Source of the DNA: Chloroflexi bacterium UBA4733
GTDB taxonomy: Bacteria; Chloroflexota; UBA4733
NCBI GenBank assembly: GCA_002404055.1
Contig: DHIZ01000246.1
Coordinates: 1-16,407 of the forward strand
DNA: 16,407 nt
Direction: 5' to 3'
The position numbers and the translations under genes are program-made. The notes under the pieces were generated by a model. The model worked only from the letters and a program-made list of their open reading frames with translations, had not been told where the DNA came from and ran no database searches. This document shows, piece by piece, positions 823 through 13,231 of the stretch (the first letter of the stretch is position 1; every line of letters starts with the position of its first letter).

Positions 823-1146
823 ATGATCGAACTGTCGCTCAGCAATACCCCAGAACAGCTTGCCGACCTACCCGACCAACTGCGCGACGGACAAACCGTG
901 ACCTTCCTCAAGGACGGGAAGCCGGTGCTGGCCGTGCTCCCGTGGGACCTGTACGAGGCCATGCTGGAACTCATTGAGATTCCGAGTGATGCTCAGACGC
1001 TGCTGGCTGCGCCAGCGGTGACGAGGGCGCGGTTGCTCACGGTTGCCGCCGCCCGTGCCGAAACCCTGTACCAGCAGGACCTTGATCTACTCGGATTTGA
1101 CGCCTTCGGAGACGACGACCTTGATGACGCTGCCGACCCGGGGTGA
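823..1146 (+). CDS. Phd/YefM-like antitoxin, partner of a truncated MazF
   Basis: This 107-residue protein has the compact Phd/YefM fold pattern. A start like 'LSLSNTPEQLADLPDQLRDG' precedes the strand-turn-strand 'QTVTFLKDGKPVLAVLPWDL' and a helix ('YEAMLELIE'). Family members bind operator DNA with this N-terminal half and neutralise a toxin with the C-terminal tail. Here the tail is acidic ('FGDDDLDDAADPG'), as expected for mimicking the RNA-binding face of a MazF-type nuclease. The ATG at 823 follows an AGGAT at 811-815. The 3' end overlaps the start of a MazF remnant by 23 bases, the usual translational coupling of toxin-antitoxin pairs. The toxin is broken, so the antitoxin is probably a survivor without a local target. 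The family call is fairly sure; the pairing is inferred from position. Confidence 0.7.
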   Translation: MIELSLSNTPEQLADLPDQLRDGQTVTFLKDGKPVLAVLPWDLYEAMLELIEIPSDAQTLLAAPAVTRARLLTVAAARAETLYQQDLDLLGFDAFGDDDLDDAADPG

Positions 1147-1737: not shown

Positions 1738-2178
1738 ATGGCCGTTCCGCACACGCTCCGAGAGCGGAGGGCTTTTGTTGATTCCTCGGCGTATCTTGCT
1801 CTGCTCGACGCCGACGACCAGTATCCTCTGGAAGCAGAAGCAATCCTACGTCGTTTGGTCGCGGCGCGCTACCGCCAGTTCACGACAAACGTACTGCTGA
1901 TCGAAGCGCACGCCCTCATTCTCTCCACGCTCGGTAGAGACAGAGCAGCACAGTTCCTGGTGGCAATGGGAAGCAGCGCTACAACCGCCGTGCGGGTGCG
2001 AGCCGCCGATGAAACGCAAGCTCAGACGCTGCTTCTGCACCACACAGACAAAAGCTATTCCTTCGCAGACGCGATCAGCTTCGTGGTGATGGAACGCTTG
2101 GGCATTCGCGCTGTCTTCACATTCGACCGGCATTTCGCACAGTTCGGCTTGCTAATCTGCAACTCTCACCTCTTGTAG
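1738..2178 (+). CDS. VapC-type PIN-domain toxin (ribonuclease)
   Basis: This is a complete 146-residue PIN domain with its acidic metal-binding residues in order: D15 ('AFVDSSAYLALLD'), E56 ('TTNVLLIEAH'), D111 ('YSFADAISFVVM') and D130 ('AVFTFDRHFAQFG'). PIN toxins of the VapC group are Mg2+/Mn2+-dependent endoribonucleases that cut tRNA or rRNA and halt growth when released from the antitoxin. The ATG at 1738 lies nine bases after the antitoxin stop, with only a weak upstream purine stretch, consistent with coupled translation. This is the most complete toxin-antitoxin pair of the left arm. The target RNA cannot be inferred. Confidence 0.88.
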   Translation: MAVPHTLRERRAFVDSSAYLALLDADDQYPLEAEAILRRLVAARYRQFTTNVLLIEAHALILSTLGRDRAAQFLVAMGSSATTAVRVRAADETQAQTLLLHHTDKSYSFADAISFVVMERLGIRAVFTFDRHFAQFGLLICNSHLL

Positions 2179-2239: not shown

Positions 2240-4777
2240 TCAAGACGGACGTTCCGCCTCCGTCAACTCCACCGCCCGGTAGCCGTTGGCTTCGATCGAC
2301 ACCGCCAGCGAACAGGCGACCTGGCCGGTGATGCGTTGGGTTGGCTCCCAGGCGCTGCGTTCGCTGTTGTAGATGCGCAGGTCGTAAGCGCCGGCGGCAT
2401 CGGCCACCTGCTGCAGGCCCAAGGGCGCCACCGTCGTGGAGGCGCCGACGTTGCCGACGAGCACCAGCAGGCAGCCCGGACGGCGCAAGGCCACCACTGC
2501 GGCGAAGGAGGAAAAGGCGTGAACCTGGCTGGAAACGTCTTCATCGAAGCGCTCCGTGGTGTGCGGCGTGTCGATGTCGGCATTAGCGTAGATATGGAAC
2601 TCGCCCTCCTGGCGGGCGGCAAAGTAGGTCAGGCTGGCGCCGTGGTAGGGCAACTGGCATAACGCCACCCACTTCCAGGTCGCCGGCACTAACGGACTGA
2701 TGCGCGGCGGGCCGGGTGTGAGCATCAGTCCGCAGACACCCTCCACCGCCGCCCACATGAAGCGCGGCGGCTCCCAGGGACTCAGCCGCATGCCACGGTT
2801 GACGAGGCTCTCGCCGTCGAACCACTCGCTGAACTGGCCGGGGACGGTGTTATTGATCCGCGGTGCGGCGGCATAGTGCTGAAACGAGGCGCGCAGGGCC
2901 TCGACCATGAACTCCGGGTGATAGCGGGCGGCCGCAAAGGCGTACCACCAGGTAAGGCCGGGCCAGACGCCGCCGATCAGCCCGACGAAGCGGAAAGGAT
3001 CGTAGAGTGGGTCGTGCCGCGAGGCGGTGCGCAGGCCGCCGCTGGTCCAGAAGTCCGGCGAGTTGAGGCGGCTGATGATGCGGAAGCCCACCTCCTCGTC
3101 GCAGACGCGGAACATCACCGGGAAGATCTCGTCACCGGTCACGTCGGTGTGAATATTGCCATCGGCGTCGATGTTGAGGTAGTAGAGTCCGTTCTGCGGG
3201 TTCAGCAGGTGCGTATCCATGGCCTCGCGCAGGTCCTGTGCCGCTGTGAAGAACGCCTGGATCTCCCGCTTGCCACGGCCCAGGTTTTCGGCGAGGTGGC
3301 CGGTGGAGCGCAGCGCCGCTGCACATTCGGCGTTGATCTCGGTGACCGCGCCGTTGAGGGTGTACTGCGGGATGACGTTACGCCAGCCGGCGATGGCCCA
3401 GACGTTGCCGCGCGGGTCCCTGGCCGAGCAGAAGACCAGACCGCGCTCATCTTCCTGGGAAATGATGTAGCGGGCCGCCTTGGCGACGACCGGGTAGATG
3501 GCCTTGAGCCACTCCAGGTCACCGGTGGCGCGGTAGTGGTGGTTGACAGCCAGGATGAAGAGCGGCGTGTCGTCGTTGATGTTCAGGCCGTAATCTTCTA
3601 CCCGGCCATCAAGCGCGTCGTAATACTCCGGGATTTTGCCGTTGGGATACTGCAAGCGGGCGAAGGTATCCAGCAGCGTCCGGGAAAAGGCCGGCAGGAA
3701 GTGGTCGTTGCCATAGACAAACCAGGCGATATCGCGGCCCACCACGTTGGAGGAGCCGCCGGGTTCGTTGGTGAAGGCCGGGCCCTGGGGGTAGCGGGCC
3801 ATCACGCGCCGCATGTTGACCTTGCTCCAGAGGGCTCCCTGGTTAATCACGGGATCGGGCGTCAGCACCTGCCCGCAGGAGAGCGTCTCTTCCAGGTGTT
3901 GCAAGGTGCTTTCCAGGGCTGCCGCCGCATCCTGTCCATCGCTGTAGGCGGCTATCGCCTTCGCTTCGCCCTCACTGGAAACGGCGGTGATGAAGGCCAA
4001 TTTAGCGCTCTCACCGGGGGCAAGTTGAAAATCGAGTTGGAGGCAAGCCAGGATGTCGCCCTTCGCCTCCGTCTTGTTGTCGAGCGGAGTCACATGCAGG
4101 CGAGTGTAGACGCGGGCGTAGTCGAAGCTGGTAGCGTAGCCACTGGGCGTCGCGGTCACGCCAAAGACGCGTACCGCATCGGGCCGCCCGGCACTGTGCG
4201 CCACCAGCGCTCGCAGCTCCGGGTCAAAGCGCGCCTCTACGTCGGCGTCCAGGCTGCCGCGCAGCCGCGCGTAGCCAAAGACACGCAGCCCTGTAGGCAC
4301 ATCGTTCTCGTTGCGCAACTCCACCATCTGGTAGACCAACGGTGGATCGCCCGGCCCATCCACGCTGCCAGTCAGCGGCAGAAAGGTAGTCTCGCTGACC
4401 TGCACCGCGCCGGCAATGGCGAAGCGATGGCGCTGGTAGGCCGGATGGAGGTCGAAAGTGCCGCGCTCTTCCTGGCTGAGGCCGACATAGGATGACGCAG
4501 TGCCTCCTTCGGGCGTGATGCCGCTCTCTTGCGGCCGGTGGCCGCGTCCGGCATAGCGAATGCATATGCTGTTGACCAGCAACTCGCCCAGTTGGACGTT
4601 GAAGACCTGCTGGATGGCGCCCGTCCCCAGGGTCGTCACCCACAGTTCGCTGTTCCCCAGGCTGGCGCCCATGTCCAGCGTGTCGTCGGCCACGCTATAC
4701 GAGGGCATCACCGAGTGGTGGGGCATGTGCGTGACGACATCGCTTTTCGCGAATTGCGTGGTACCTGTTGCTAGCAT
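2240..4777 (-). CDS. Six-hairpin ((alpha/alpha)6-barrel) glycosidase, substrate unknown
   Basis: This protein of about 845 residues resembles glucoamylase/glycogen-debranching-type hydrolases. It has an N-terminal beta-sandwich (about 20-290), an (alpha/alpha)6 barrel (about 300-690) and a C-terminal beta domain (about 710-845). Barrel landmarks are 'SSNVVGRDIAWFVYGNDHF', 'PNGKIPEYYDALDGRVEDYG', 'LNINDDTPLFILAVNHHYRA', 'NGAVTEINAECAAAL' and 'FSEWFDGES'. Likely acid/base candidates are D402/D403, E480 and E651. I chose ATG 4777 over the upstream ATG at 4834 because an AGAGGAG lies nine bases before it (4787-4793). No signal peptide or membrane segment is seen, so it should act in the cytoplasm. 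No sugar transporter or regulator is adjacent. Exact GH family and substrate are not determined; an alpha-glucosidase or trehalose/oligosaccharide hydrolase is possible. Confidence 0.8.
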   Translation of the reverse strand: MLATGTTQFAKSDVVTHMPHHSVMPSYSVADDTLDMGASLGNSELWVTTLGTGAIQQVFNVQLGELLVNSICIRYAGRGHRPQESGITPEGGTASSYVGLSQEERGTFDLHPAYQRHRFAIAGAVQVSETTFLPLTGSVDGPGDPPLVYQMVELRNENDVPTGLRVFGYARLRGSLDADVEARFDPELRALVAHSAGRPDAVRVFGVTATPSGYATSFDYARVYTRLHVTPLDNKTEAKGDILACLQLDFQLAPGESAKLAFITAVSSEGEAKAIAAYSDGQDAAAALESTLQHLEETLSCGQVLTPDPVINQGALWSKVNMRRVMARYPQGPAFTNEPGGSSNVVGRDIAWFVYGNDHFLPAFSRTLLDTFARLQYPNGKIPEYYDALDGRVEDYGLNINDDTPLFILAVNHHYRATGDLEWLKAIYPVVAKAARYIISQEDERGLVFCSARDPRGNVWAIAGWRNVIPQYTLNGAVTEINAECAAALRSTGHLAENLGRGKREIQAFFTAAQDLREAMDTHLLNPQNGLYYLNIDADGNIHTDVTGDEIFPVMFRVCDEEVGFRIISRLNSPDFWTSGGLRTASRHDPLYDPFRFVGLIGGVWPGLTWWYAFAAARYHPEFMVEALRASFQHYAAAPRINNTVPGQFSEWFDGESLVNRGMRLSPWEPPRFMWAAVEGVCGLMLTPGPPRISPLVPATWKWVALCQLPYHGASLTYFAARQEGEFHIYANADIDTPHTTERFDEDVSSQVHAFSSFAAVVALRRPGCLLVLVGNVGASTTVAPLGLQQVADAAGAYDLRIYNSERSAWEPTQRITGQVACSLAVSIEANGYRAVELTEAERPS

Positions 4778-4786
4778 CGACGGCTG

Positions 4787-4793
4787 CTCCTCT
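4787..4793 (-). promoter_or_regulatory. Ribosome binding site deciding the glycosidase start
   Basis: On the minus strand AGAGGAG stands nine bases before the ATG at 4777. The longer alternative start at 4834 has no such site, so the shorter protein is preferred. Confidence 0.7.
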
Positions 4794-4901
4794 GCATGCG
4801 GCGGCAACGCGCGGCCGCCTGCCCCGTACCGCATTCGCAGAAATCACGCCAGGAAACAGCCGAGAACTGACGTGACGCCGGAAAGGCAACGACTGGCCGC
4901 G

Positions 4902-5028: not shown

Positions 5029-5052
5029 CTCTCTCCCGTGAGAGGGAGAGAG
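5029..5052. repeat. Inverted repeat CTCTCTCCC / GGGAGAGAG with the kinase start in its loop
   Basis: Perfect nine-base arms at 5029-5037 and 5044-5052 enclose the loop GTGAGA. A purine-rich tail follows (TTAGAGAGAGGGG, 5053-5065). The style resembles dispersed intergenic elements of the 'CTCTCCC...GGGAGAG...GTTAG...GAGGGG' kind found in many GC-rich genomes. The kinase GTG at 5038 is the first triplet of the loop. Confidence 0.7.
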
Positions 5053-7320
5053 TTAGAGAGAGGGGTCCCCCTGGAGCGGCAAGCGGAGGAACTGGCGGCG
5101 CTACGCGATGTCGGTCGTGCGCTCTCCGGCTCGCTGGAACTGGGCGATGTGCTGCAGGTCATACTGCGGGCGGTCACCGAGACGCTCGGCTTCGACATGG
5201 GCGCCATCGCCCTGGTGGACCCCAAGGACCACCTGATTCGCGGCGTCCTGGGCATCAACCAGGACGAGGCGGTCATTGCCGCCATTCGCTGCCGCCTGGA
5301 TAGTCCGGACATCCGGGCCGACGTCATTCGCACCGGCAAGGTGGAAGTCGTCGACGGCTGGGACCCGCGCCTGGACCGGGAGACGTTCGAGCAATACGGT
5401 CATCACAACCACGCCACCATCTTCGGGCCAATCACGGTCTATGGCGAGCGGATCGGCGTGCTCAGCGCCTCCCGCCAGCGCGCCACCCATTCGCCCATTA
5501 GCCAGCACGAGTTCGGCCTCTTCGCGCTGTTCCTGGACCATGCCGGCATCGCCTTACAGAACGCCAGAATCCTGGAGAACGAGCGAAAAAAGAGCCGGCG
5601 ACTGTGGGCAGTGAACGAGGTCGGCCGGCGGGCCACGGCCTCGCTGGAACTGAACCAGTTGCTGATCGACACAACGCAACTGGTGCGCGACACCTTCAGC
5701 TACCAGCGTGTGGCCGTCATGCTGATTGACCCGCACGAACCCGCGACGCTCTACCGCGCCGCCTACAGCGCCGTTTCCGACGAGGCCTGGCCGGTGTTGC
5801 GGCAGCCTATCGGCACCGGCATGATCGGCTGGGTAGCGCAGACCGGCCAGACCCAGCTTGCCAACGACACCAGGAACGACGCGCACTTTGTGCAAGCGCC
5901 TGGTCCGCACACCGGTTCCGAGTTGGACGTGCCGCTCAAGGTCGGCCCGCGCATCATCGGCGTCCTCAGCATCGAAGGGGAAACTGTCGAGAGCTTCGAG
6001 CCGGACGACATCCCGTTCCTGGAGACGCTGGCCGACCAGATCGCCATCGCCATCCACAACAGCCGGCTTTACCAGGCGGCCCAGCGGCAAACCCAACAAC
6101 TGGGGGCGATCAACACAGTGGCGCGCCGGATGAGCAGCCTGATGACCTCCCAGGAGCTCATGCCGTTTGTGGTGGCGTTGCTGCGGGAAACCTTTCATTG
6201 GTACAGCGTCTCCATCTTCCTGCGCCCAGCCGGCGACGACGCGGCGAGCATCGTGCTGGCTGCTGCGGCCGGCGGTGAGCCGGGGCCGATGCCGCCCGGC
6301 ACGCGTCTGCGGCTGGGCCAGGACGGTATCGTTGGTTGGGTCGCTGCTTCCGGCGACGCCTTGCTGGCGAACGACGTGCTGCACGAACCACGCTTCCTCG
6401 CCTACCCCGGTCTGCCGGATACGGCGGCGGAGGTGGCCGTGCCGATCCGCCGCGGCGACCGCATCGCTGGCGTCCTGGACGTACAGAGCGCGCAGCGCAA
6501 CGCCTTCGACGCCCTGGATGTCGCCACCTTGCAGACGCTGGCCGATCAGATCGGCATCGCCCTGGAGAATGCCCGCCTCTACACGGAGGCGGCCGAACGC
6601 GCGACGCATCTCGCGGCGGCGAACCAGCAACTGGCCGAGCTCGACCGCATGAAGTCGCACTTTATCTCCATGGTCTCCCACGAGTTGCGCACGCCATTAG
6701 GGCTGATCAAGGGCTACGTCGGCACGCTACAACGCAGCGACCTCGCCCTGGATGCAGAGAGCCGGCGGGAATTCCTGACCGTGATCGAAGAGGAGGCCGA
6801 CAATCTGGCGGACCTCGTCGGCAACTTGCTGGACGCCTCCCGGCTAGAGGCGGGTACCCTGGCGCTGGAGTTGCATCCAACACGGCTGCTCCCACTCATC
6901 CGCAAGGCGGTCCACGACGCCCGCGAACGCGCACCCGACTACCAGTTCGAGCTGGACCTGCCCGCCGAGCTACCACTCGTCAATGCCGACACTCGCCGTC
7001 TGGAGCAGGTGTTCCGTAACCTGCTGGACAATGCGGTGAAGTACTCACCGGTCGGCAGCACGATCACGATCAGCGCTGAAGCGGCGCAGGCAGGCGTCAT
7101 CGTGGCGGTGCGCGACGAGGGCCTCGGCATCGCCGATGAGCACAGCGAGCGCATTTTTGATCGCTTTTTCCGCGTTGACCAGACCGACAACCGACGCGGA
7201 GGAGGCTCGGGTCTCGGTCTGGCAATCACGAAGGGCATCATCGACGGCCACGGCGGCCGTATCTGGGTGGAGAGCGCGCCGGGCCTGGGCAGCACCTTTC
7301 GGATCTGGCTGCCGGGGTGA
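5038..7320 (+). CDS. Soluble GAF-GAF-GAF sensor histidine kinase (orphan)
   Basis: This 760-residue protein has three GAF domains (about 15-175, 190-340 and 345-512), a short linking helix ('LAAANQQLAELDRMKSHF') and a kinase core. The HisKA box is 'FISMVSHELRTPLGLIKGYV' with phospho-acceptor H548. The ATPase has an N box around N665 ('RNLLDNAVKYSP'), a G1 box D693-E-G-L-G697 and a G2 box 'GGGSGLGLAI' from G721. All residues needed for autophosphorylation are present. No transmembrane segment is visible, so it should sense a cytoplasmic ligand or redox/light signal through GAF domains; the ligand is unknown. No response regulator is in the window. The start is doubtful: GTG 5038 is the only start codon after the in-frame TAA at 4924, has no Shine-Dalgarno, and lies in an inverted repeat, so residues 2-9 are encoded by repeat DNA. 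Confidence 0.9.
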   Translation: MRGRELERGVPLERQAEELAALRDVGRALSGSLELGDVLQVILRAVTETLGFDMGAIALVDPKDHLIRGVLGINQDEAVIAAIRCRLDSPDIRADVIRTGKVEVVDGWDPRLDRETFEQYGHHNHATIFGPITVYGERIGVLSASRQRATHSPISQHEFGLFALFLDHAGIALQNARILENERKKSRRLWAVNEVGRRATASLELNQLLIDTTQLVRDTFSYQRVAVMLIDPHEPATLYRAAYSAVSDEAWPVLRQPIGTGMIGWVAQTGQTQLANDTRNDAHFVQAPGPHTGSELDVPLKVGPRIIGVLSIEGETVESFEPDDIPFLETLADQIAIAIHNSRLYQAAQRQTQQLGAINTVARRMSSLMTSQELMPFVVALLRETFHWYSVSIFLRPAGDDAASIVLAAAAGGEPGPMPPGTRLRLGQDGIVGWVAASGDALLANDVLHEPRFLAYPGLPDTAAEVAVPIRRGDRIAGVLDVQSAQRNAFDALDVATLQTLADQIGIALENARLYTEAAERATHLAAANQQLAELDRMKSHFISMVSHELRTPLGLIKGYVGTLQRSDLALDAESRREFLTVIEEEADNLADLVGNLLDASRLEAGTLALELHPTRLLPLIRKAVHDARERAPDYQFELDLPAELPLVNADTRRLEQVFRNLLDNAVKYSPVGSTITISAEAAQAGVIVAVRDEGLGIADEHSERIFDRFFRVDQTDNRRGGGSGLGLAITKGIIDGHGGRIWVESAPGLGSTFRIWLPG

Positions 7321-7367: not shown

Positions 7368-8774
7368 TTAGCTCCGGGGCTTGCCATGCAGCGCCAGGCT
7401 AACGGCCGCCGAACACGCCGCCGCGAGGATGATCAGGGCGAAAACGTGCTTGACATCGGCCGTCGTGGGGGCCGAGGCGGTCAGCAGGATCGGCAGAACG
7501 CTGGAGCCGACGATGCTGCCGAGGTAGCGGCTCGTTGAGTACATGCCGGAGGCAGCGCCGGCCTCGCGGGCCGTGACGGCTTCCACGGCGGCGGTCTGCA
7601 TGCCGGGATTGGCGATGCCCAGTCCCGCTCCGGCTACGGCAAGCGAGAGCGTGAGCACCAGCCCAGACCAACCGGGCGCCTCCCGTAACAGCGGCAAGAG
7701 TGCCAAGGTGAAGAGCGTGAGGCCGCCGACCACGGGCGCGCGCCGGCCGTAGCGATCGGCCAGTCGCCCACCAAACGGCGTGCAGGTGACACTGACCGCC
7801 GACAAGGCGGTCAGCACCAGGCCGATATGGCTACTCGTCCAATGGGCTTGTCGGGTGAGGATCACCGGTAACGCCAGAATGATCGAATACATGGCCAGAT
7901 TACTGAGGGCGACAGCCGCCGTTGCGGCAGCGAAGGAACGGCGCAGAAAAAAGTGTGGATGGAAGACCGGTTCCGGGTGGTGCAGTTCGCGGAGGACAAA
8001 CAGCACAGCAAGCAGCAGCAGCACGCCACCGGCCAGCAGCAGAGGTGGCGCCGAGGCAGCGCCTGAGGCACGCAGCAACAAGGAGACGCCCACCAATATG
8101 CTGCACAGGAGCACCGCGCCCAGCAGGTCGAAGGACTGACCGCGCCGAGTAACCGTGTGACGCGGTAAGACGCGCCATCCCAGGAGGAAAGCGGCGAGGA
8201 CGATCGGCACGTTCATATAGAAGATGGCCTGCCAGCCAGCCGTACTCACCAACACGCCACCCAGCGGGGGGCCGGCCGCGGCGGCGATGCTCACGACCGC
8301 ACCCACCAGGCCGAAGCTGGCGGCACGCCGCTGCTCGGGGACAACCTCTCGCACCAGCGCCATCCCGTTGGGCAGGGCGATGGCAGCGCACATGGCTTGC
8401 AGCAGCCGAAACAGCACCAATACCGACAGGGAGGGCGCGATGAGCGCGCCCAGCGAGGCGAGGCCGAAGCCGGCCAGCCCACCCAATATGAAAGGGCGAC
8501 GGCCCAGTTGGTCGCCCAGCTTGCCCGCCACCGGTTGGATGGCGGCCATGGCCACCAGATAGGACGTCACCAACCAGCCGGCCGAGGCCAGTGATGCCCC
8601 ATAGGCCAGCATGATGGCCGGCAGGGCCACAGCGAGCATGGTGGAATTGAGCGGCGCCAGCATGCCACTCAGCGCGACGGTGGCGAGGACCGCGCGCTCC
8701 GTGCGAAGATCGCCGGTTTTCTCGCCCCGCGCGTCAGCTCGCGCTGAGGATGCGGACCAGACCGGCGTCGCCAT
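7368..8774 (-). CDS. MFS drug exporter, DHA2-like (14-helix) family
   Basis: A protein of about 468 residues, hydrophobic throughout, with the length of 14-helix DHA2 proton antiporters such as EmrB/QacA. The first helix carries 'APLNSTMLAVALP', the family motif with Asn where many members have Asp. Motif A is present between helices 2 and 3 ('GKLGDQLGRRPF'), the antiporter motif C in helix 5 ('AAAAGPPLGGVLVSTAGW') followed by 'QAIFYMNVPI', and a second motif A-like loop ('GGRLADRYGRRAP') in the second half. ATG 8774 follows GGTGGAGG closely; ATG 8795 is an alternative. Both starts lie inside the upstream phospho-histidine gene (stop at 8734), so translation is coupled. Predicted role: proton-driven efflux of a small molecule, possibly the product or substrate of the upstream enzyme pair. 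Confidence 0.9.
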   Translation of the reverse strand: MATPVWSASSARADARGEKTGDLRTERAVLATVALSGMLAPLNSTMLAVALPAIMLAYGASLASAGWLVTSYLVAMAAIQPVAGKLGDQLGRRPFILGGLAGFGLASLGALIAPSLSVLVLFRLLQAMCAAIALPNGMALVREVVPEQRRAASFGLVGAVVSIAAAAGPPLGGVLVSTAGWQAIFYMNVPIVLAAFLLGWRVLPRHTVTRRGQSFDLLGAVLLCSILVGVSLLLRASGAASAPPLLLAGGVLLLLAVLFVLRELHHPEPVFHPHFFLRRSFAAATAAVALSNLAMYSIILALPVILTRQAHWTSSHIGLVLTALSAVSVTCTPFGGRLADRYGRRAPVVGGLTLFTLALLPLLREAPGWSGLVLTLSLAVAGAGLGIANPGMQTAAVEAVTAREAGAASGMYSTSRYLGSIVGSSVLPILLTASAPTTADVKHVFALIILAAACSAAVSLALHGKPRS

Positions 8775-10431
8775 CAACCTCCACCATCTGGCCATCGTGT
8801 AAGGTTGCCGTCGCTGAGCCGACGCCGACGACCGCCGGAATGCGGTATTCGCGCGCCACGACAGCGCAGTGGCTGAGAATACCGCCGGTATCGGTCACTA
8901 CCGCCGCCGCCGTGGCAAACAGCGGCGTCCACGGCGGCGCTGTCGTTTCCGCCACCAGCACGTCGCCCTGCTGGAGCTTGCCGGCCTCCGTCAGCGAACG
9001 AAGCATGCGCACTGGACCGCGGATCACACCAGGTGAACCGGCATGGCCGTACAAGACGTTGGCATCGTCGGAAGGACGCGGCGGAGCGCCAAAGAACTTG
9101 CCCATCGCTCGGGCCAGCGGATTGTCCGGCGGTGGCCCCGGCGGCAGTGACCCGAGCGCCGGCGGCGCCTGGAGGGTTGCCAGCCGCGCCAGTTCCGTCT
9201 TCCGCGCCACCACAGTCTGCTGTTGCTGCAGCGCCGGCAGGACCGCTGCTGTGGCGCGGATCTCCGGCAGCGTGAGCAAGAAGACGTCGTTCGCCTCCGC
9301 CAACACCGCTGCTGCCACAAAGCGCCGGCCAAACTCCATGAACACCTGGCGGACCCGGTACATGACGCGCTGGTCGATCCAGAAGTTGTGGTCTTCGTGC
9401 AGTTGGTTACCCACCTGCGCCGCTTTCAAGAAGAACTCAAACTGGCCGACGACTTGCTGCGGGTAGCCTTGCAGTTGTCGGCGCGCCTGGGCGATCAACT
9501 GCTCACGCTCTGCCGCCAGCGTTGCCCGTTCCTGTTCTGGGTCCGGCTCCATCCGGCGACAGTAGTCTTGCAGCATCCGGATGGCTGGTCGTGGATCCTC
9601 GAGCCAGGATGGCGTGCTGAGCAGGTATTTGTCGCCACGCTGACCGTATTCCAGCAAGTACGCCTGGAACTCGGCCAGGAAGGCGCGACCGGATCGGGAC
9701 CGCTCTAAAGCCGACACGATGTCGTCGGCCGCTTCCTCAGCCAGCACCGTGTGCACCTCCGGCAGCATCAGCACCCGCCGGCTCAGCTTCCAGAGCGCTT
9801 CGCCCGCCTCCACCGACTTGTTGAGCATCCCTTGCAGCAGTTTGTAGGAGCCGAATTCGCTCTCCGTACCAAAGATGTCGCGATACAGTTCATCAAACAG
9901 ACTGATCGACACGAAGGCGGGGAACACGGTAAAAAAGTGAATGGCCCAGCAGCGCAGCATGCGCGTGACGGTGTCGTCCAGGTGGGCCAGGAGTTCCGCC
10001 GTGCCGGCTCCCTGCAGATCGAAGGTCGCCCACTGCTCCAGGTGCCGCTGCAACTCGGGCAGGGACTCTTCCCGCCACTGGCGGTCCAAGTCCGCGACCC
10101 GAGCGCTCATCTTCTCCTGGACACCTGCTTCCGCCGCATGCATTTCCTCCGGCGAAGTCATTGTCGGCGCCATTGCCATGTACATCCGGCCGTTGATGGC
10201 CCTGGCGTGCATCCGCACCGGCATGCCCATCGCCGCGAACGGCTGATTGAAGCTCTCGTTGTGGATTGGTTCCATCACCGCAGCATCAATTGGGGTGCAG
10301 ATGTCGGGGAAATGCATTCGGTCTTGTGTCCAGAAGAACCGCTGCTCGTGAGGTGAGTTCCACTGCACCGGGAAGTGCGGCGGTATCGGGATCACCTGGG
10401 GTGCTGCAGGTTCCAGGGCAGGTGCGGACAT
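8734..10431 (-). CDS. PEP-utilising-type phosphotransferase subunit: helical substrate domain plus swivelling phospho-His domain
   Basis: This 565-residue protein has two parts. Residues about 20-440 form a mostly helical region with motifs typical of the substrate domain of rifampin phosphotransferase and phenylphosphate synthase relatives: 'FFWTQDRMHFPDICTPID', 'EYGQRGDKYLLSTPSWLEDP', 'QLHEDHNFWIDQR' and 'EANDVFLLTLPEIRA'. A Pro/Ala linker follows (about 421-437). Residues about 465-565 are the PEP-utiliser mobile domain, 'TDTGGILSHCAVVAREYRIP', with phosphorylatable H521. There is no PEP/pyruvate TIM barrel and no ATP-grasp domain; the latter is the separate gene upstream. The ATG at 10431 follows an AAGGA. 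Predicted reaction: the histidine accepts phosphate from ATP via the partner and passes it to a small molecule. The substrate is unknown. Confidence 0.85.
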   Translation of the reverse strand: MSAPALEPAAPQVIPIPPHFPVQWNSPHEQRFFWTQDRMHFPDICTPIDAAVMEPIHNESFNQPFAAMGMPVRMHARAINGRMYMAMAPTMTSPEEMHAAEAGVQEKMSARVADLDRQWREESLPELQRHLEQWATFDLQGAGTAELLAHLDDTVTRMLRCWAIHFFTVFPAFVSISLFDELYRDIFGTESEFGSYKLLQGMLNKSVEAGEALWKLSRRVLMLPEVHTVLAEEAADDIVSALERSRSGRAFLAEFQAYLLEYGQRGDKYLLSTPSWLEDPRPAIRMLQDYCRRMEPDPEQERATLAAEREQLIAQARRQLQGYPQQVVGQFEFFLKAAQVGNQLHEDHNFWIDQRVMYRVRQVFMEFGRRFVAAAVLAEANDVFLLTLPEIRATAAVLPALQQQQTVVARKTELARLATLQAPPALGSLPPGPPPDNPLARAMGKFFGAPPRPSDDANVLYGHAGSPGVIRGPVRMLRSLTEAGKLQQGDVLVAETTAPPWTPLFATAAAVVTDTGGILSHCAVVAREYRIPAVVGVGSATATLHDGQMVEVDGDAGLVRILSAS

Positions 10432-10473
10432 GCGTTTATCCTTTCATGCTGTTATAGATGCGTCGTGACACGC

Positions 10474-11366
10474 TTACGCCACGCTTTCCGCGCGCAACGT
10501 GGTGATGGGACGGCACTGCAAGAGATAGATCTGCCCCTCCCGGTAGGCGCACTCGATGTCCACAGGCCAGCCCATGGCGTCTTCCAGGGAGCAGGCCAGG
10601 CGCGCCATAGCGGCGGCCTGGGCATCATCGAGCACCGGAACGGCGCGCAGCAGGCGCGGTACGTCGACCTCGCGGGTACCACCAGGTACCGGCACCGTCA
10701 TGCGCTGCTTCTCACCGATGCACCGGGAGCGCACCGTAAAGTCCATTTTGGCGACCACGTAGGTATCGGGCGTCACTGTGCCGCCCACAATGCTTTCCCC
10801 CAGTCCCCAACTGGCGTTGATCACCACCTCGTCGCTGCGGCTCGTCACCGGGTTGTTGCTGAAGACGACCGACGCCACATCGGCGGCGACGAGTTGTTGG
10901 ACGAGCACCGCCAGTTGCACGCCGCCTACCTGGAGGCCATGCTGACGCCGGTAGTCGAGCGCCCGTTCGGTCCCCGCCGACCGCCAGCAACGACGCACGG
11001 CTGCCGCCACTGCATCCAGACCACTAACTTGAGATAGGTGTCGTGTTGCCCGGCAAAGGAGACGTCCTGGCCGTCTTCGTCGACAGCGGAGGAGCGCACG
11101 GCGACGCACGGTTCCGCACTCCCGAGACGCTCCGCCAGGGTGCGGTAGGCGACCGCCAGGGCCGCATAGAGCGCGGCCGGCAGAGGCGGCGAGCCGCCAT
11201 CGCCCTGCATCTGCGGAGCCTCCAGCGCCTGCTGCGCCGCAAGCGTCGTGAGGCAAAAGCCGAGGGGCACGGGATACAGAGCGGCGAGGCGACTGAGGTT
11301 CGCAGTCTTACCGCCTACCAGACCAACACGGCAGCACTCCGCCTCTTCCAACCAGACAATTTGCAT
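10474..11366 (-). pseudogene. ATP-grasp (PPDK_N) subunit of a split PEP-synthase-like phosphotransferase, with one apparent frameshift
   Basis: The ATG at 11366, eight bases after GGGAG, opens the ATP-binding domain of the pyruvate phosphate dikinase/PEP synthase family. K20 lies in 'VGLVGGKTANLSRLAAL' and R91 in 'CVAVRSSAVDEDGQDVSFAG'. After 'DTYLK' (K113, 11028-11030) the frame is lost, and it resumes one base out as 'SGLDAVAAAVRRCW'. It then runs through 'VVFSNNPVTS', 'EVVINASWGLGESIVGGTV' and 'PVDIECAYREG' to the 'LLQCRPIT' end and the stop at 10474. One missing base near 11026-11030 (AAG-TT-AGT for AAG-GTT-AGT) would give a normal protein of about 297 residues. All catalytic motifs survive, so a sequencing error is as likely as true inactivation. 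The 42-base gap to the phospho-His gene indicates one operon. Confidence 0.8.
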
Positions 11367-11599: not shown

Positions 11600-12266
11600 C
11601 GGGCCACCTCCCGCCACCGAGGGCGTCGGATCGGTCGGGTCGTACCGATAGCAATCCGGACTCTCCGTCGTTGCTGCCGGCTCCGGGGCTAGCGCCCCGT
11701 CACCGTCGCCCGCCCGGAGCTACCACGGGGTCGGGGCAACCCCGGGCAGGGGCCAGGTCTCGGCGCCGAGCCAGACGTCCGGGCCGATCAGGTACACCCA
11801 CACCGGCGGGTCGGCGGCAATGTCGGTTGGGCGCTGCTGCAAATAGTGATAGTACCAGCGGCCACGAAACGCAGAGCATGCCGACGCGGCCGTTCGACCA
11901 TTCCTGGCCTGCGGCCCACTCACCCGTGTCGTAGCCATCCCCCGCGGGAGCGCCGGGCATCGGCCCGCGAAAGTCTCCCTCCGATTCGCGGCTGCCGCGC
12001 AGGTTCACGCCGAGGACGGCGTAGCCGCGCGCCGCGTAGTACTCCCCGGCCGGCCCGGTGCGTGACTGCAGGAGCTGCGGTCCGCGCTCGACGAGCACCG
12101 GGTAACGACCCGGCGTGGCGGAAAGCCACAGCGTCGCTTCGAGGCGCGTGCCATCGCGCATGGGTACCCGCAGCCCCGTCTCCACGCTGACCTGGTGCTC
12201 AGGAGGCCGGGCGACTGTCCGCGCCCCGAGCGAACTGACCACCAATCGTTCCCACACTTCAGTCAT
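11600..12266 (-). pseudogene. CocE/NonD-type alpha/beta hydrolase, pseudogene with internal deletion
   Basis: The ATG at 12266 has an excellent AGGAGG six bases upstream (12273-12278). It opens a typical X-Pro dipeptidyl-peptidase/cocaine-esterase N terminus: 'VPMRDGTRLEATLWL', 'YPVLVERGPQ', 'YYAARGYAVLGVNLRGSRES' and 'EWSNGRVGMLCVS' at the nucleophile elbow. Around 11865 the reading changes frame and jumps directly to the start of the C-terminal beta domain, 'RGRWYYHYLQ', 'DPPVWVYLIGPDVW' and 'PGVAPTPW'. About 190 residues are missing, including the rest of the elbow and the Asp/His region. The TAG at 11720-11722 stands where the family has Tyr, yet recognisable sequence continues past it ('YRYDPTDPTPSVAGG') to about 11603. 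Two or three disabling changes make it certainly non-functional. Confidence 0.8.
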
Positions 12267-12272
12267 GAGAAA

Positions 12273-12278
12273 CCTCCT
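12273..12278 (-). promoter_or_regulatory. Strong ribosome binding site of the CocE-type pseudogene
   Basis: AGGAGG on the minus strand, six bases before the ATG at 12266, fixes the ancestral start of this gene and rules out the in-frame ATG at 12326. Confidence 0.75.
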
Positions 12279-12353
12279 AAACTCTTTCGACACACGACGA
12301 CCCTCACGCCGCATGGTGGATGGCACGACGCCATCGGCACTTGGTCACGCCTT

Positions 12354-12541: not shown

Positions 12542-12832
12542 CTACTGGCGGTCGGCGGGGGGCCATTCCTGGGCGCCGTGGAGCAGGCGTAAGATGCGCA
12601 GGCTCGTTTCTCTGGTGCGATAGACCACGACGTAGGGCGTGCCGGCGATAACCAACTCTCGCGTTCCTTCCAGCCGCCCCGGCCGGCCGCGTTGGGGAAA
12701 GTCGGCCAGGTGCTCCACCGCCTCGCGGATGGCCGCCTGCGCCTTCCGGGCGGCTGCGGGGCTACGTTCAGCCAGATAGACCAGGTGGGACCGGAGGTCA
12801 CGGCGCGCCGGAGCGGTCCAGACGATCTCCAC
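12542..12832 (-). CDS. ParE/RelE-superfamily toxin
   Basis: This 96-residue protein has the ParE/RelE fold signature: N-terminal strand 'MEIVWTAPARRDLRSHLVYL', two helices, 'VEHLADFPQRGRPGRLEGTR', then the beta-sheet 'ELVIAGTPYVVVYR' and 'LRILRLLHGAQEWPP' with the typical 'L..LHGAQ.WP' ending. Such toxins either inhibit gyrase (ParE) or cut mRNA at the ribosome (RelE); the ending favours the ParE side. The start is GTG 12832, which shares its first base with the antitoxin TAG stop (TAGTG), so the two are translationally coupled. It looks intact. Confidence 0.88.
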   Translation of the reverse strand: MEIVWTAPARRDLRSHLVYLAERSPAAARKAQAAIREAVEHLADFPQRGRPGRLEGTRELVIAGTPYVVVYRTRETSLRILRLLHGAQEWPPADRQ

Positions 12833-13089
12833 TACCGCTCGCTGGTCCGGTGGTCGCCCAGCAGCGACTCGGCCTCCGCCATCACCACATCATGCGCAAC
12901 GACATCGCCAGCATCGTCAGCGCGGATGCCTTCTTGCACCGCCTCGATGAACTGCTGCTCCGATTGGATATAGCCGCGGACAGCCTCCTCAATGACCCAC
13001 GAACGGTTCCGTCGGAGCGCCTGGGCGAGCGTCGTGATCTGCTGGCTCAGTTCTTCGGAAACACGGGCCGAAATGGTGACTTCTTTCAC
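12832..13089 (-). CDS. Ribbon-helix-helix (CopG/ParD-type) antitoxin
   Basis: This 85-residue protein begins with an RHH DNA-binding domain: strand 'KEVTISARVSEELSQQITTL', helix 'AQALRRNRSWVIEEAVRGYI'. A toxin-binding acidic helix follows ('EQQFIEAVQEGIRADDAGDV'). The start is GTG 13089, eight bases after GAGGAGG (13098-13104); the in-frame ATG further upstream would add 18 residues before the RHH strand and lacks such a site. It is followed by the ParE toxin with a one-base overlap. RHH antitoxins repress their own promoter, which should lie in the AT-richer stretch 13105-13150. Confidence 0.85.
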   Translation of the reverse strand: MKEVTISARVSEELSQQITTLAQALRRNRSWVIEEAVRGYIQSEQQFIEAVQEGIRADDAGDVVAHDVVMAEAESLLGDHRTSER

Positions 13090-13231
13090 CAGGGCAACCT
13101 CCTCAACAGCAGTCAGGTTAGCATAGAACGTAATACAATGCAAACACTATAAGGACGCACCGCCCGCGCCGCCAGGCGCATTGGCGGCACCGCCAGGGGC
13201 AGGAGCGCAGGCCGATCCGCAGCAGCCTTCC

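What the first reader, a model, noticed from the sequence alone, without database searches (positions are those of the whole stretch)
7368..11366. Split rifampin-phosphotransferase-like enzyme fused by operon to an MFS exporter
Seen: an ATP-grasp gene (~297 codons), a 565-residue gene with a helical domain and phospho-His H521, and a DHA2-type exporter overlapping it. Established: rifampin phosphotransferase is a single ~866-residue chain with ATP-grasp, substrate and His domains in this order; phenylphosphate synthase divides the same modules between two subunits. Inference: 297 + 565 residues is close to the single-chain enzyme cut after the ATP-grasp domain. No phenylphosphate carboxylase (UbiD-type) gene is present in the window, while an efflux pump is translationally coupled, so a detoxifying 'phosphorylate and export' unit for an antibiotic or phenolic compound fits better than phenol catabolism.
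Basis: partly seen in the sequence, partly recalled or inferred. Interest (0 to 1): 0.75.

Follow-up and report, generated by a model that had tools for sequence, protein, structure and literature searches.

The report
Split small-molecule kinase with its exporter
A bacterial enzyme made in two parts, which should put phosphate on an unknown small molecule, is encoded next to its own membrane pump; the pairing recurs in related bacteria and suggests coupled modification and export of a foreign compound, although in this stretch of DNA one half of the enzyme is out of frame.

The parts
11032..11366 (-). ATP-grasp subunit, N-terminal piece, from the ATG used by relatives to the frame break near 11,030 (the ORF itself runs 11405 to 10926)
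   Evidence: PF01326 profile positions 76-129; GGKT, VRSSAVDED, GQHDTY motifs
10474..11031 (-). ATP-grasp subunit, C-terminal piece, in a different frame (the ORF runs 11256 to 10474; homology starts at about 11,031)
   Evidence: PF01326 profile positions 128-316 at ORF residues 76-258; 58-66% identity to relatives' ATP-grasp genes over about 180 aa in the close loci
8734..10431 (-). 565-aa substrate-binding + swivel subunit (HpeH/PpsA-like architecture)
9142..10377 (-). substrate-binding domain, about residues 19-430
9388..9396 (-). E346-D347-H348 motif in place of the RPH Arg-Glu-Tyr-Pro-Lys block
   Evidence: E346 44/44 and H348 44/44 in the window group (43 distinct; P0001 is the window's own protein); Arg345 0/44, Lys349 0/44
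8737..9063 (-). swivel (phosphohistidine) domain, about residues 457-565
   Evidence: PF00391; VIA matches to pyruvate kinase, enzyme I and PPDK carrier domains
8869..8871 (-). codon of phospho-accepting H521
   Evidence: H in 100 of 100 rows
7368..8774 (-). 14-helix DHA2-type MFS transporter; start at 8774 as in relatives (ORF opens at 8795), overlapping the kinase gene by 41 nt
   Evidence: PF07690 3.3e-59; closest solved sequences QacA, EmrB, EfpA; 14 long helices, pLDDT 86.5; Foldseek EfpA TMq 0.81, EmrB 0.82

Best explanation
A two-component small-molecule dikinase of an uncharacterised branch, encoded with its own 14-helix exporter. The ATP-grasp subunit would bind ATP and pyrophosphorylate H521 of the large subunit's swivel domain; after loss of the gamma-phosphate the swivel would dock on the helical substrate domain and pass the phosphate to a hydroxyl of a small, probably phenolic or polyketide-like compound, with E346 and H348 in the active site. 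The coupled MFS would expel the compound or its phosphate, so that the unit detoxifies. Shown here: domain make-up, fold, motif, family position, recurrent linkage to the MFS and lack of the known catabolic partners. Inferred: the chemistry (from RPH and HpeHI), export rather than import, and detoxification. In this window the ATP-grasp gene is frame-broken, so this copy may be inactive unless an unlinked ATP-grasp subunit serves or the break is a sequence error.
For: Domains; fold match to RPH; HpeHI paper shows the same division of labour and loss of activity on changing the His (PMC12167813). Natural fusions of both subunits, 815-870 aa, in 4 loci. ATP-grasp gene within 1.5 kb in 14 of 16 loci of the window clade. 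MFS of the window's kind within 1.5 kb: window clade 8 of 16, clade B 7 of 22, clade C 6 of 6, against 0 of 7, 0 of 3, 0 of 9 in other branches and 0 of 10 RPH loci (one, L097, has no downstream flank). In 20 longer loci 9 such MFS genes in 55,885 bp beside the kinase and 0 in 221,005 bp further away. Reverse test: 31 of 53 fetched MFS loci are beside a kinase or ATP-grasp gene; 15 of 17 at 500 bits or more; 25 of 47 and 9 of 11 without the six whose MFS was in the query alignment (subtraction mine). Genomes holding both: 19 of 26 MFS-bearing genomes, expected 5.0, and 31 of 34, expected 6.6. Kinase and MFS divergence correlate, r 0.52, 0 of 5,000 permutations. Closest solved transporters are efflux pumps. 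20 reference proteins of catabolic or related operons gave one hit (FAH family, L071) in 23 loci.
Against: 8 of 16 loci of the window's clade have no MFS of this kind within 1.5 kb; five of these have a large ATPase-LuxR-type regulator upstream instead, so export is not obligatory. Within the window clade alone the kinase-MFS divergence correlation is not significant (r 0.32, nominal p 0.10, 8 pairs). The MFS model used was built from kinase-linked MFS genes. Counts are of related genomes, not independent events, and genome size was not controlled. In clade B only 3 of 22 loci have an ATP-grasp gene nearby. The window's own ATP-grasp gene is broken. No substrate is known.
Confidence: 0.55

Rival explanations
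1. Uptake and trapping: the MFS imports a phenolic compound and the kinase traps it as a phosphate ester for catabolism, as proposed for HpeHI.
For: The characterised two-component dikinases are catabolic, and trapping is the published rationale (PMC12167813; PMC9618137). The Glu-x-His motif is shared with them. One relative has an FAH-family gene beside it (L071); the Thermomicrobium-type kinase lies in an apparently catabolic operon (L012).
Against: The MFS groups by sequence and fold with efflux pumps; the other catabolic references were not found in 23 loci; the three phenolic reference loci have no MFS of this kind.
Confidence: 0.2
2. Biosynthetic role: the dikinase activates a precursor, as the prodigiosin ligases PigC and RedH do, and the MFS exports the product.
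For: RedH and PigC profiles match the large subunit (160.5 and 144.1 bits); an O-methyltransferase lies beside it in two relatives (L072, L081).
Against: Far below the RedH and PigC cut-offs (1350, 1300). Of the 30 flanking genes scanned, none matched a polyketide or peptide synthase family; neighbours differ from locus to locus.
Confidence: 0.12
3. The window copy is a decaying remnant: the ATP-grasp frame break and the truncated S15 peptidase gene upstream show that the unit is no longer used here.
For: Two frames. A 99% identical protein from another record, P0125 (148 aa), starts at the internal GTG just after the end of the first frame, as a gene caller would do if the same break were present. 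The S15 gene matches only profile positions 1-114 of 262.
Against: The large subunit and the MFS are intact and conserved; P0125 may also be a fragment at a contig end; a sequencing or assembly error cannot be excluded; other long genes of the window are intact.
Confidence: 0.4
4. A true RPH cut in two, acting on rifamycins.
Against: Arg and Lys of the RPH catalytic block are absent, 0 of 44 and 0 of 44, though published as critical (Arg) or phosphate-network (Lys) residues (PMC4844700); 139.9 bits against a cut-off of 999; separate clade; genomes G067 and G028 carry an RPH over the cut-off as well as this pair.
Confidence: 0.03

Closest known systems
HpeHI, CreHI and PpsAB (two-component phenolic dikinases; PMC12167813, PMC9618137)
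   Same: Separate ATP-grasp and substrate+swivel subunits; T/SxxGGxxxH motif around the phospho-His; Glu-x-His in the substrate domain
   Different: Separate clade; 204.8 bits against 747-809 for the three references on NF006153, cut-off 578; no carboxylase, P450 or phosphatase partners but an MFS
Rifampin phosphotransferase RPH (PMC4844700; PDB 5hv1, 5fbu)
   Same: Three-module dikinase fold, phospho-His swivel, catalytic Glu
   Different: One chain; Arg-Glu-Tyr-Pro-Lys block that is not present here; 0 of 10 RPH loci have the MFS
Zearalenone phosphotransferase ZPH (PMC11768653, passages only)
   Same: Described there as having ATP-, His- and substrate-binding domains and as inactivating a mycotoxin by ATP-dependent phosphorylation: a detoxifying precedent
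   Different: Single chain in Bacillus; not compared here by sequence
DHA2-type multidrug pumps EmrB, QacA, EfpA
   Same: 14 helices in the model; best sequence and fold matches
   Different: Below the TIGR00711 cut-off (202.7 against 230.2); a subfamily largely found beside dikinase subunits
Modify-and-export self-resistance, e.g. the kalimantacin proposal (PMC6804068, passage only)
   Same: Export of an enzymatically inactivated compound
   Different: Other enzymes and transporters; in antibiotic producers

Membership tests
Rifampin phosphotransferase (NF041857) | NCBIfam score over the curated cut-off (999 bits) | tested here: not met
   139.9 (large subunit), 50.5 and 140.4 (ATP-grasp pieces)
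Rifampin phosphotransferase (NF041857) | Block-9 Arg-Glu and Lys (R666, E667, K670 in RPH-Lm) | tested here: not met
   Glu kept 44/44, Arg 0/44, Lys 0/44 in the window group; 9/9 each in nine RPH rows
Rifampin phosphotransferase (NF041857) | Fold of substrate and swivel domains | tested here: met
Rifampin phosphotransferase (NF041857) | Same clade as RPH | tested here: not met
   RPH rows are one side of a branch with SH-aLRT 100; window elsewhere (quick tree)
Rifampin phosphotransferase (NF041857) | Phosphorylates rifampin | not testable with these tools
   needs an assay
Two-component phenolic dikinases (PpsAB, CreHI, HpeHI) | Two polypeptides: ATP-grasp, and substrate+swivel | tested here: inconclusive
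   True of relatives (ATP-grasp within 1.5 kb in 14 of 16 loci of the clade); in the window the ATP-grasp gene is in two frames
Two-component phenolic dikinases (PpsAB, CreHI, HpeHI) | T/SxxGGxxxH around the phospho-His | tested here: met
   TDTGGILSH, H521
Two-component phenolic dikinases (PpsAB, CreHI, HpeHI) | NCBIfam NF006153 over cut-off (578) | tested here: not met
   204.8; references 808.9, 772.1, 747.0
Two-component phenolic dikinases (PpsAB, CreHI, HpeHI) | Same clade as the references | tested here: not met
   The three references form a clade with SH-aLRT 100 apart from the window; the window's 24-row set has 100 and with L022 and L024 91
Two-component phenolic dikinases (PpsAB, CreHI, HpeHI) | Neighbouring carboxylase, P450 or phosphatase genes | tested here: not met
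   0 of 16 such reference proteins from L013-L015 found in 23 loci by tblastn; of 4 further references from L012 one (FAH family) hit L071
Two-component phenolic dikinases (PpsAB, CreHI, HpeHI) | Phosphorylates phenols with ATP to AMP | not testable with these tools
   needs an assay
PEP synthase / PPDK | C-terminal PEP-binding TIM-barrel domain (recalled as PF02896) | tested here: not met
   Not among the Pfam matches of the two subunits or the MFS
Prodigiosin ligases PigC / RedH | NCBIfam cut-offs 1300 / 1350 | tested here: not met
   144.1 / 160.5
DHA2 (EmrB/QacA) drug:H+ antiporters | 14 transmembrane helices | tested here: met
   14 long helices in the model
DHA2 (EmrB/QacA) drug:H+ antiporters | TIGR00711 over cut-off (230.2) | tested here: not met
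   202.7
DHA2 (EmrB/QacA) drug:H+ antiporters | Drug export | not testable with these tools
   needs a transport assay

The most novel reading that the evidence does not exclude
A kinase-pump module widespread in Chloroflexota and present at least in Latescibacteria: a two-part phosphohistidine dikinase of a branch with no characterised member and a dedicated 14-helix MFS that travel together, in changing gene orders and also as kinase fusions, and modify and expel a class of natural toxins still to be found; the dikinase fold would then serve coupled modification and export, not only single-enzyme resistance (RPH) or phenol catabolism (PpsAB, CreHI, HpeHI).
Probability: 0.4. Interest if true: 0.7.

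Novelty: new variant of a known kind. Interest (0 to 1): 0.52.

Why it matters
The HpeHI authors called two-component small-molecule dikinases relatively unexplored and expected homologues in other processes (PMC12167813). This branch is abundant in environmental bacteria, has no characterised member that I found, and carries a physical clue to its role: a specific transporter. If it modifies and exports, it is a self-contained detoxification unit whose natural substrates could be found by testing one enzyme pair; if the transporter imports, it is a new entry route for aromatic compounds. Either answer would tell what this large kinase superfamily does beyond rifampin and phenol.

Tried and rejected
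Own genome: none is held. Plasmid search with the MFS found nothing at E<=1e-40. Programmed frameshift: not favoured, because the relatives' ATP-grasp genes P0121 and P0122 are each one continuous protein; no dedicated search for slippery sites was made beyond reading the sequence. RPH, PEP synthase, PigC/RedH and phenolic-dikinase membership were considered and rejected as in the membership table. Equal contig lengths among the three protein searches (lists capped at 120 each) are weak evidence: 7, 3 and 6 coincidences against 1.5, 1.4 and 1.6 expected; only the long lengths (80497, 117954, 38425, 13607, 13054) are telling. VIA's list showed no structure of an HpeH-type subunit; absence there excludes nothing. 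Rows dropped before counts: L002, L005, L006, L009 and L011 (duplicates or partial alternatives), L007, L031 and L035 (partial or double-length chains); L031 and L035 also have an MFS beside them but were not counted. Loci counted are the up to 30 best fetched per search, not all 77 of 400 and 57 of 294 genomes with a match. L088's large subunit was missed by the longest-ORF listing and found by the six-frame search. Paper searches on the kinase-exporter pairing listed none that describes it; listings only, and most subscription papers are not held.
Full report
What is there. On the minus strand lie, in order, an ATP-grasp gene in two frames (10474-11366), a 565-codon gene (8734-10431) and an MFS gene (7368-8795). 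Pfam finds PPDK_N (PF01326) in both ATP-grasp pieces, the PEP-utilisers mobile domain (PF00391) at the end of the 565-aa protein and MFS_1 in the third. The ATP-grasp gene is not one frame: 893 nt, two ORFs, N-terminal motifs in one and C-terminal motifs in the other. Relatives P0121 and P0122 are continuous. P0125, 99% identical to the window's second piece, begins at an internal GTG right after the end of the first frame, which hints that another record has the same break, but a contig end would look alike. The pieces were not joined. Close MFS relatives are annotated Chloroflexota (P0243, P0245).

Family. The split is known: HpeI is the ATP-grasp part and HpeH the substrate and swivel parts of an RPH-like dikinase, with CreHI and PpsAB as relatives (PMC12167813: abstract, parts 1-3 of 6 and discussion read). 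In a quick tree of 82 rows RPH (9 rows) and the three phenolic references each form a group with SH-aLRT 100, and the window lies in a third group (24 rows at 100; 26 with L022 and L024 at 91). NCBIfam scores agree: 204.8 on NF006153 against 747-809 for the references and a cut-off of 578; 139.9 on the RPH model against 999. The reference loci come from annotated plasmids: Azoarcus with ppc genes (L015), Rhizobium with biotin carboxylase genes (L013), Rhodococcus with a P450 (L014); that they are PpsA, HpeH and CreH is my reading of those neighbours.

Neighbours. Matches to the large subunit (E <= 1e-60) occur in 77 of 400 genomes of one phylum sample and 57 of 294 of one class sample, which overlap; only the best loci were fetched. 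An MFS like the window's lies within 1.5 kb in 8 of 16 loci of the window clade (window included), 7 of 22 of clade B, 6 of 6 of clade C, 0 of 7 Thermomicrobium-type, 0 of 3 phenolic and 0 of 9 other loci and 0 of 10 RPH loci (L097 lacks a downstream flank). A Fisher test of 21 of 44 against 0 of 29 gives 1.9e-6 but treats related genomes as independent. Gene order varies (ATP-grasp, kinase, MFS in line; ATP-grasp divergent; MFS upstream; MFS convergent with fused kinases), which argues for selection on the link rather than one inherited string. L086 and L089 have 4-nt overlaps of kinase and MFS genes. In 20 longer loci all 9 such MFS genes are beside the kinase, none in 221 kb further off (the model was trained on linked MFS). 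In the reverse search 31 of 53 fetched MFS loci lie beside a kinase or ATP-grasp gene, 15 of 17 among those at 500 bits or more; without the six loci in the query alignment 25 of 47 and 9 of 11 (subtraction mine). In three genomes (G568, G549, G604) the MFS sits with an ATP-grasp gene at a contig other than that of the large subunit. Genomes with both: 19 of 26 (5.0 expected) and 31 of 34 (6.6 expected). Divergence of linked kinase and MFS correlates (r 0.52, 0 of 5,000 permutations; 21 loci) but not significantly within the window clade (r 0.32, 8 loci). Outside Chloroflexota, Latescibacteria proteins P0093 (kinase) and P0323 (MFS) share a contig length of 117,954, which I take as one contig.

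Against. Eight window-clade loci lack this MFS. L021 has an MFS of another type beside it; L001, L020, L047, L017 and L048 have a large ATPase-LuxR-type regulator upstream; L017 and L048 also an O-methyltransferase; L016 has an FAH-like gene; L046 a YebC-like gene. Clade B has a nearby ATP-grasp gene in only 3 of 22 loci. The unit is therefore a frequent, not obligatory, association.

Transporter. Closest solved sequences are QacA, EmrB and EfpA; the model has 14 long helices and matches EfpA and EmrB with TMq 0.81-0.82. All these are efflux pumps, hence the preference for export; DHA2 placement is below the NCBIfam cut-off.

Catabolism test. Twenty reference proteins from L012-L015 (carboxylases, UbiD, UbiX, biotin enzymes, HAD phosphatase, P450, dehydrogenases and others) gave one hit, FAH family in L071, in 23 loci (all 20 found themselves).

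Verdict. A known kind of enzyme (two-component small-molecule dikinase), a branch without a characterised member that I found, in a gene partnership with a specific exporter that the papers listed in my searches do not describe. The mechanism of the kinase is well supported by homology; export and detoxification are the best guess; the window's own copy may be inactive.

Noticed in passing
window 11700-12326 (-): S15-type peptidase gene reduced to 208 codons; Pfam match covers only profile positions 1-114 of 262, so the gene looks truncated or frame-broken, next to the frame-broken ATP-grasp gene.
   Followed up: partly
window 2240-4834 (-) and L073 4730-7213 (-): An 864-aa MGH1-like glycoside hydrolase near the module has a 40% identical homologue near the kinase-MFS genes of L073; chance or shared context unknown.
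   Followed up: partly
L001, L075, L080, L072, L081: Window-clade loci without the MFS carry a large ATPase-LuxR-type regulator directly upstream of the kinase gene, an alternative partner that might sense the substrate.
   Followed up: partly
L072 11261-12304 (+), L081 3404-4348 (-): O-methyltransferase next to the kinase gene in two relatives, 62% identical to each other.
   Followed up: no
L030, L032, L040, L042; also L031, L035: Natural fusions of ATP-grasp and kinase subunits (815-870 aa), and double-length chains with two kinase regions, with an MFS beside them.
   Followed up: partly
G568, G549, G604 (loci L133, L137, L140): ATP-grasp gene paired with the MFS at a contig other than that of the large subunit.
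   Followed up: partly
window 12542-13143 (-): ParE-type toxin and ribbon-helix-helix antitoxin pair.
   Followed up: no
window 823-1146 (+) and 1738-2178 (+): A small gene without Pfam match and a PIN-domain gene, possibly remains of toxin-antitoxin pairs.
   Followed up: no
window 5038-7320 (+): Histidine kinase with three GAF domains, convergent with the MFS gene.
   Followed up: no
L012 (Thermomicrobium roseum plasmid): A further kinase branch lies in an operon with xanthine-dehydrogenase-like, FAH and cyclase-family genes, with its ATP-grasp gene about 3 kb upstream: probably another catabolic dikinase.
   Followed up: partly
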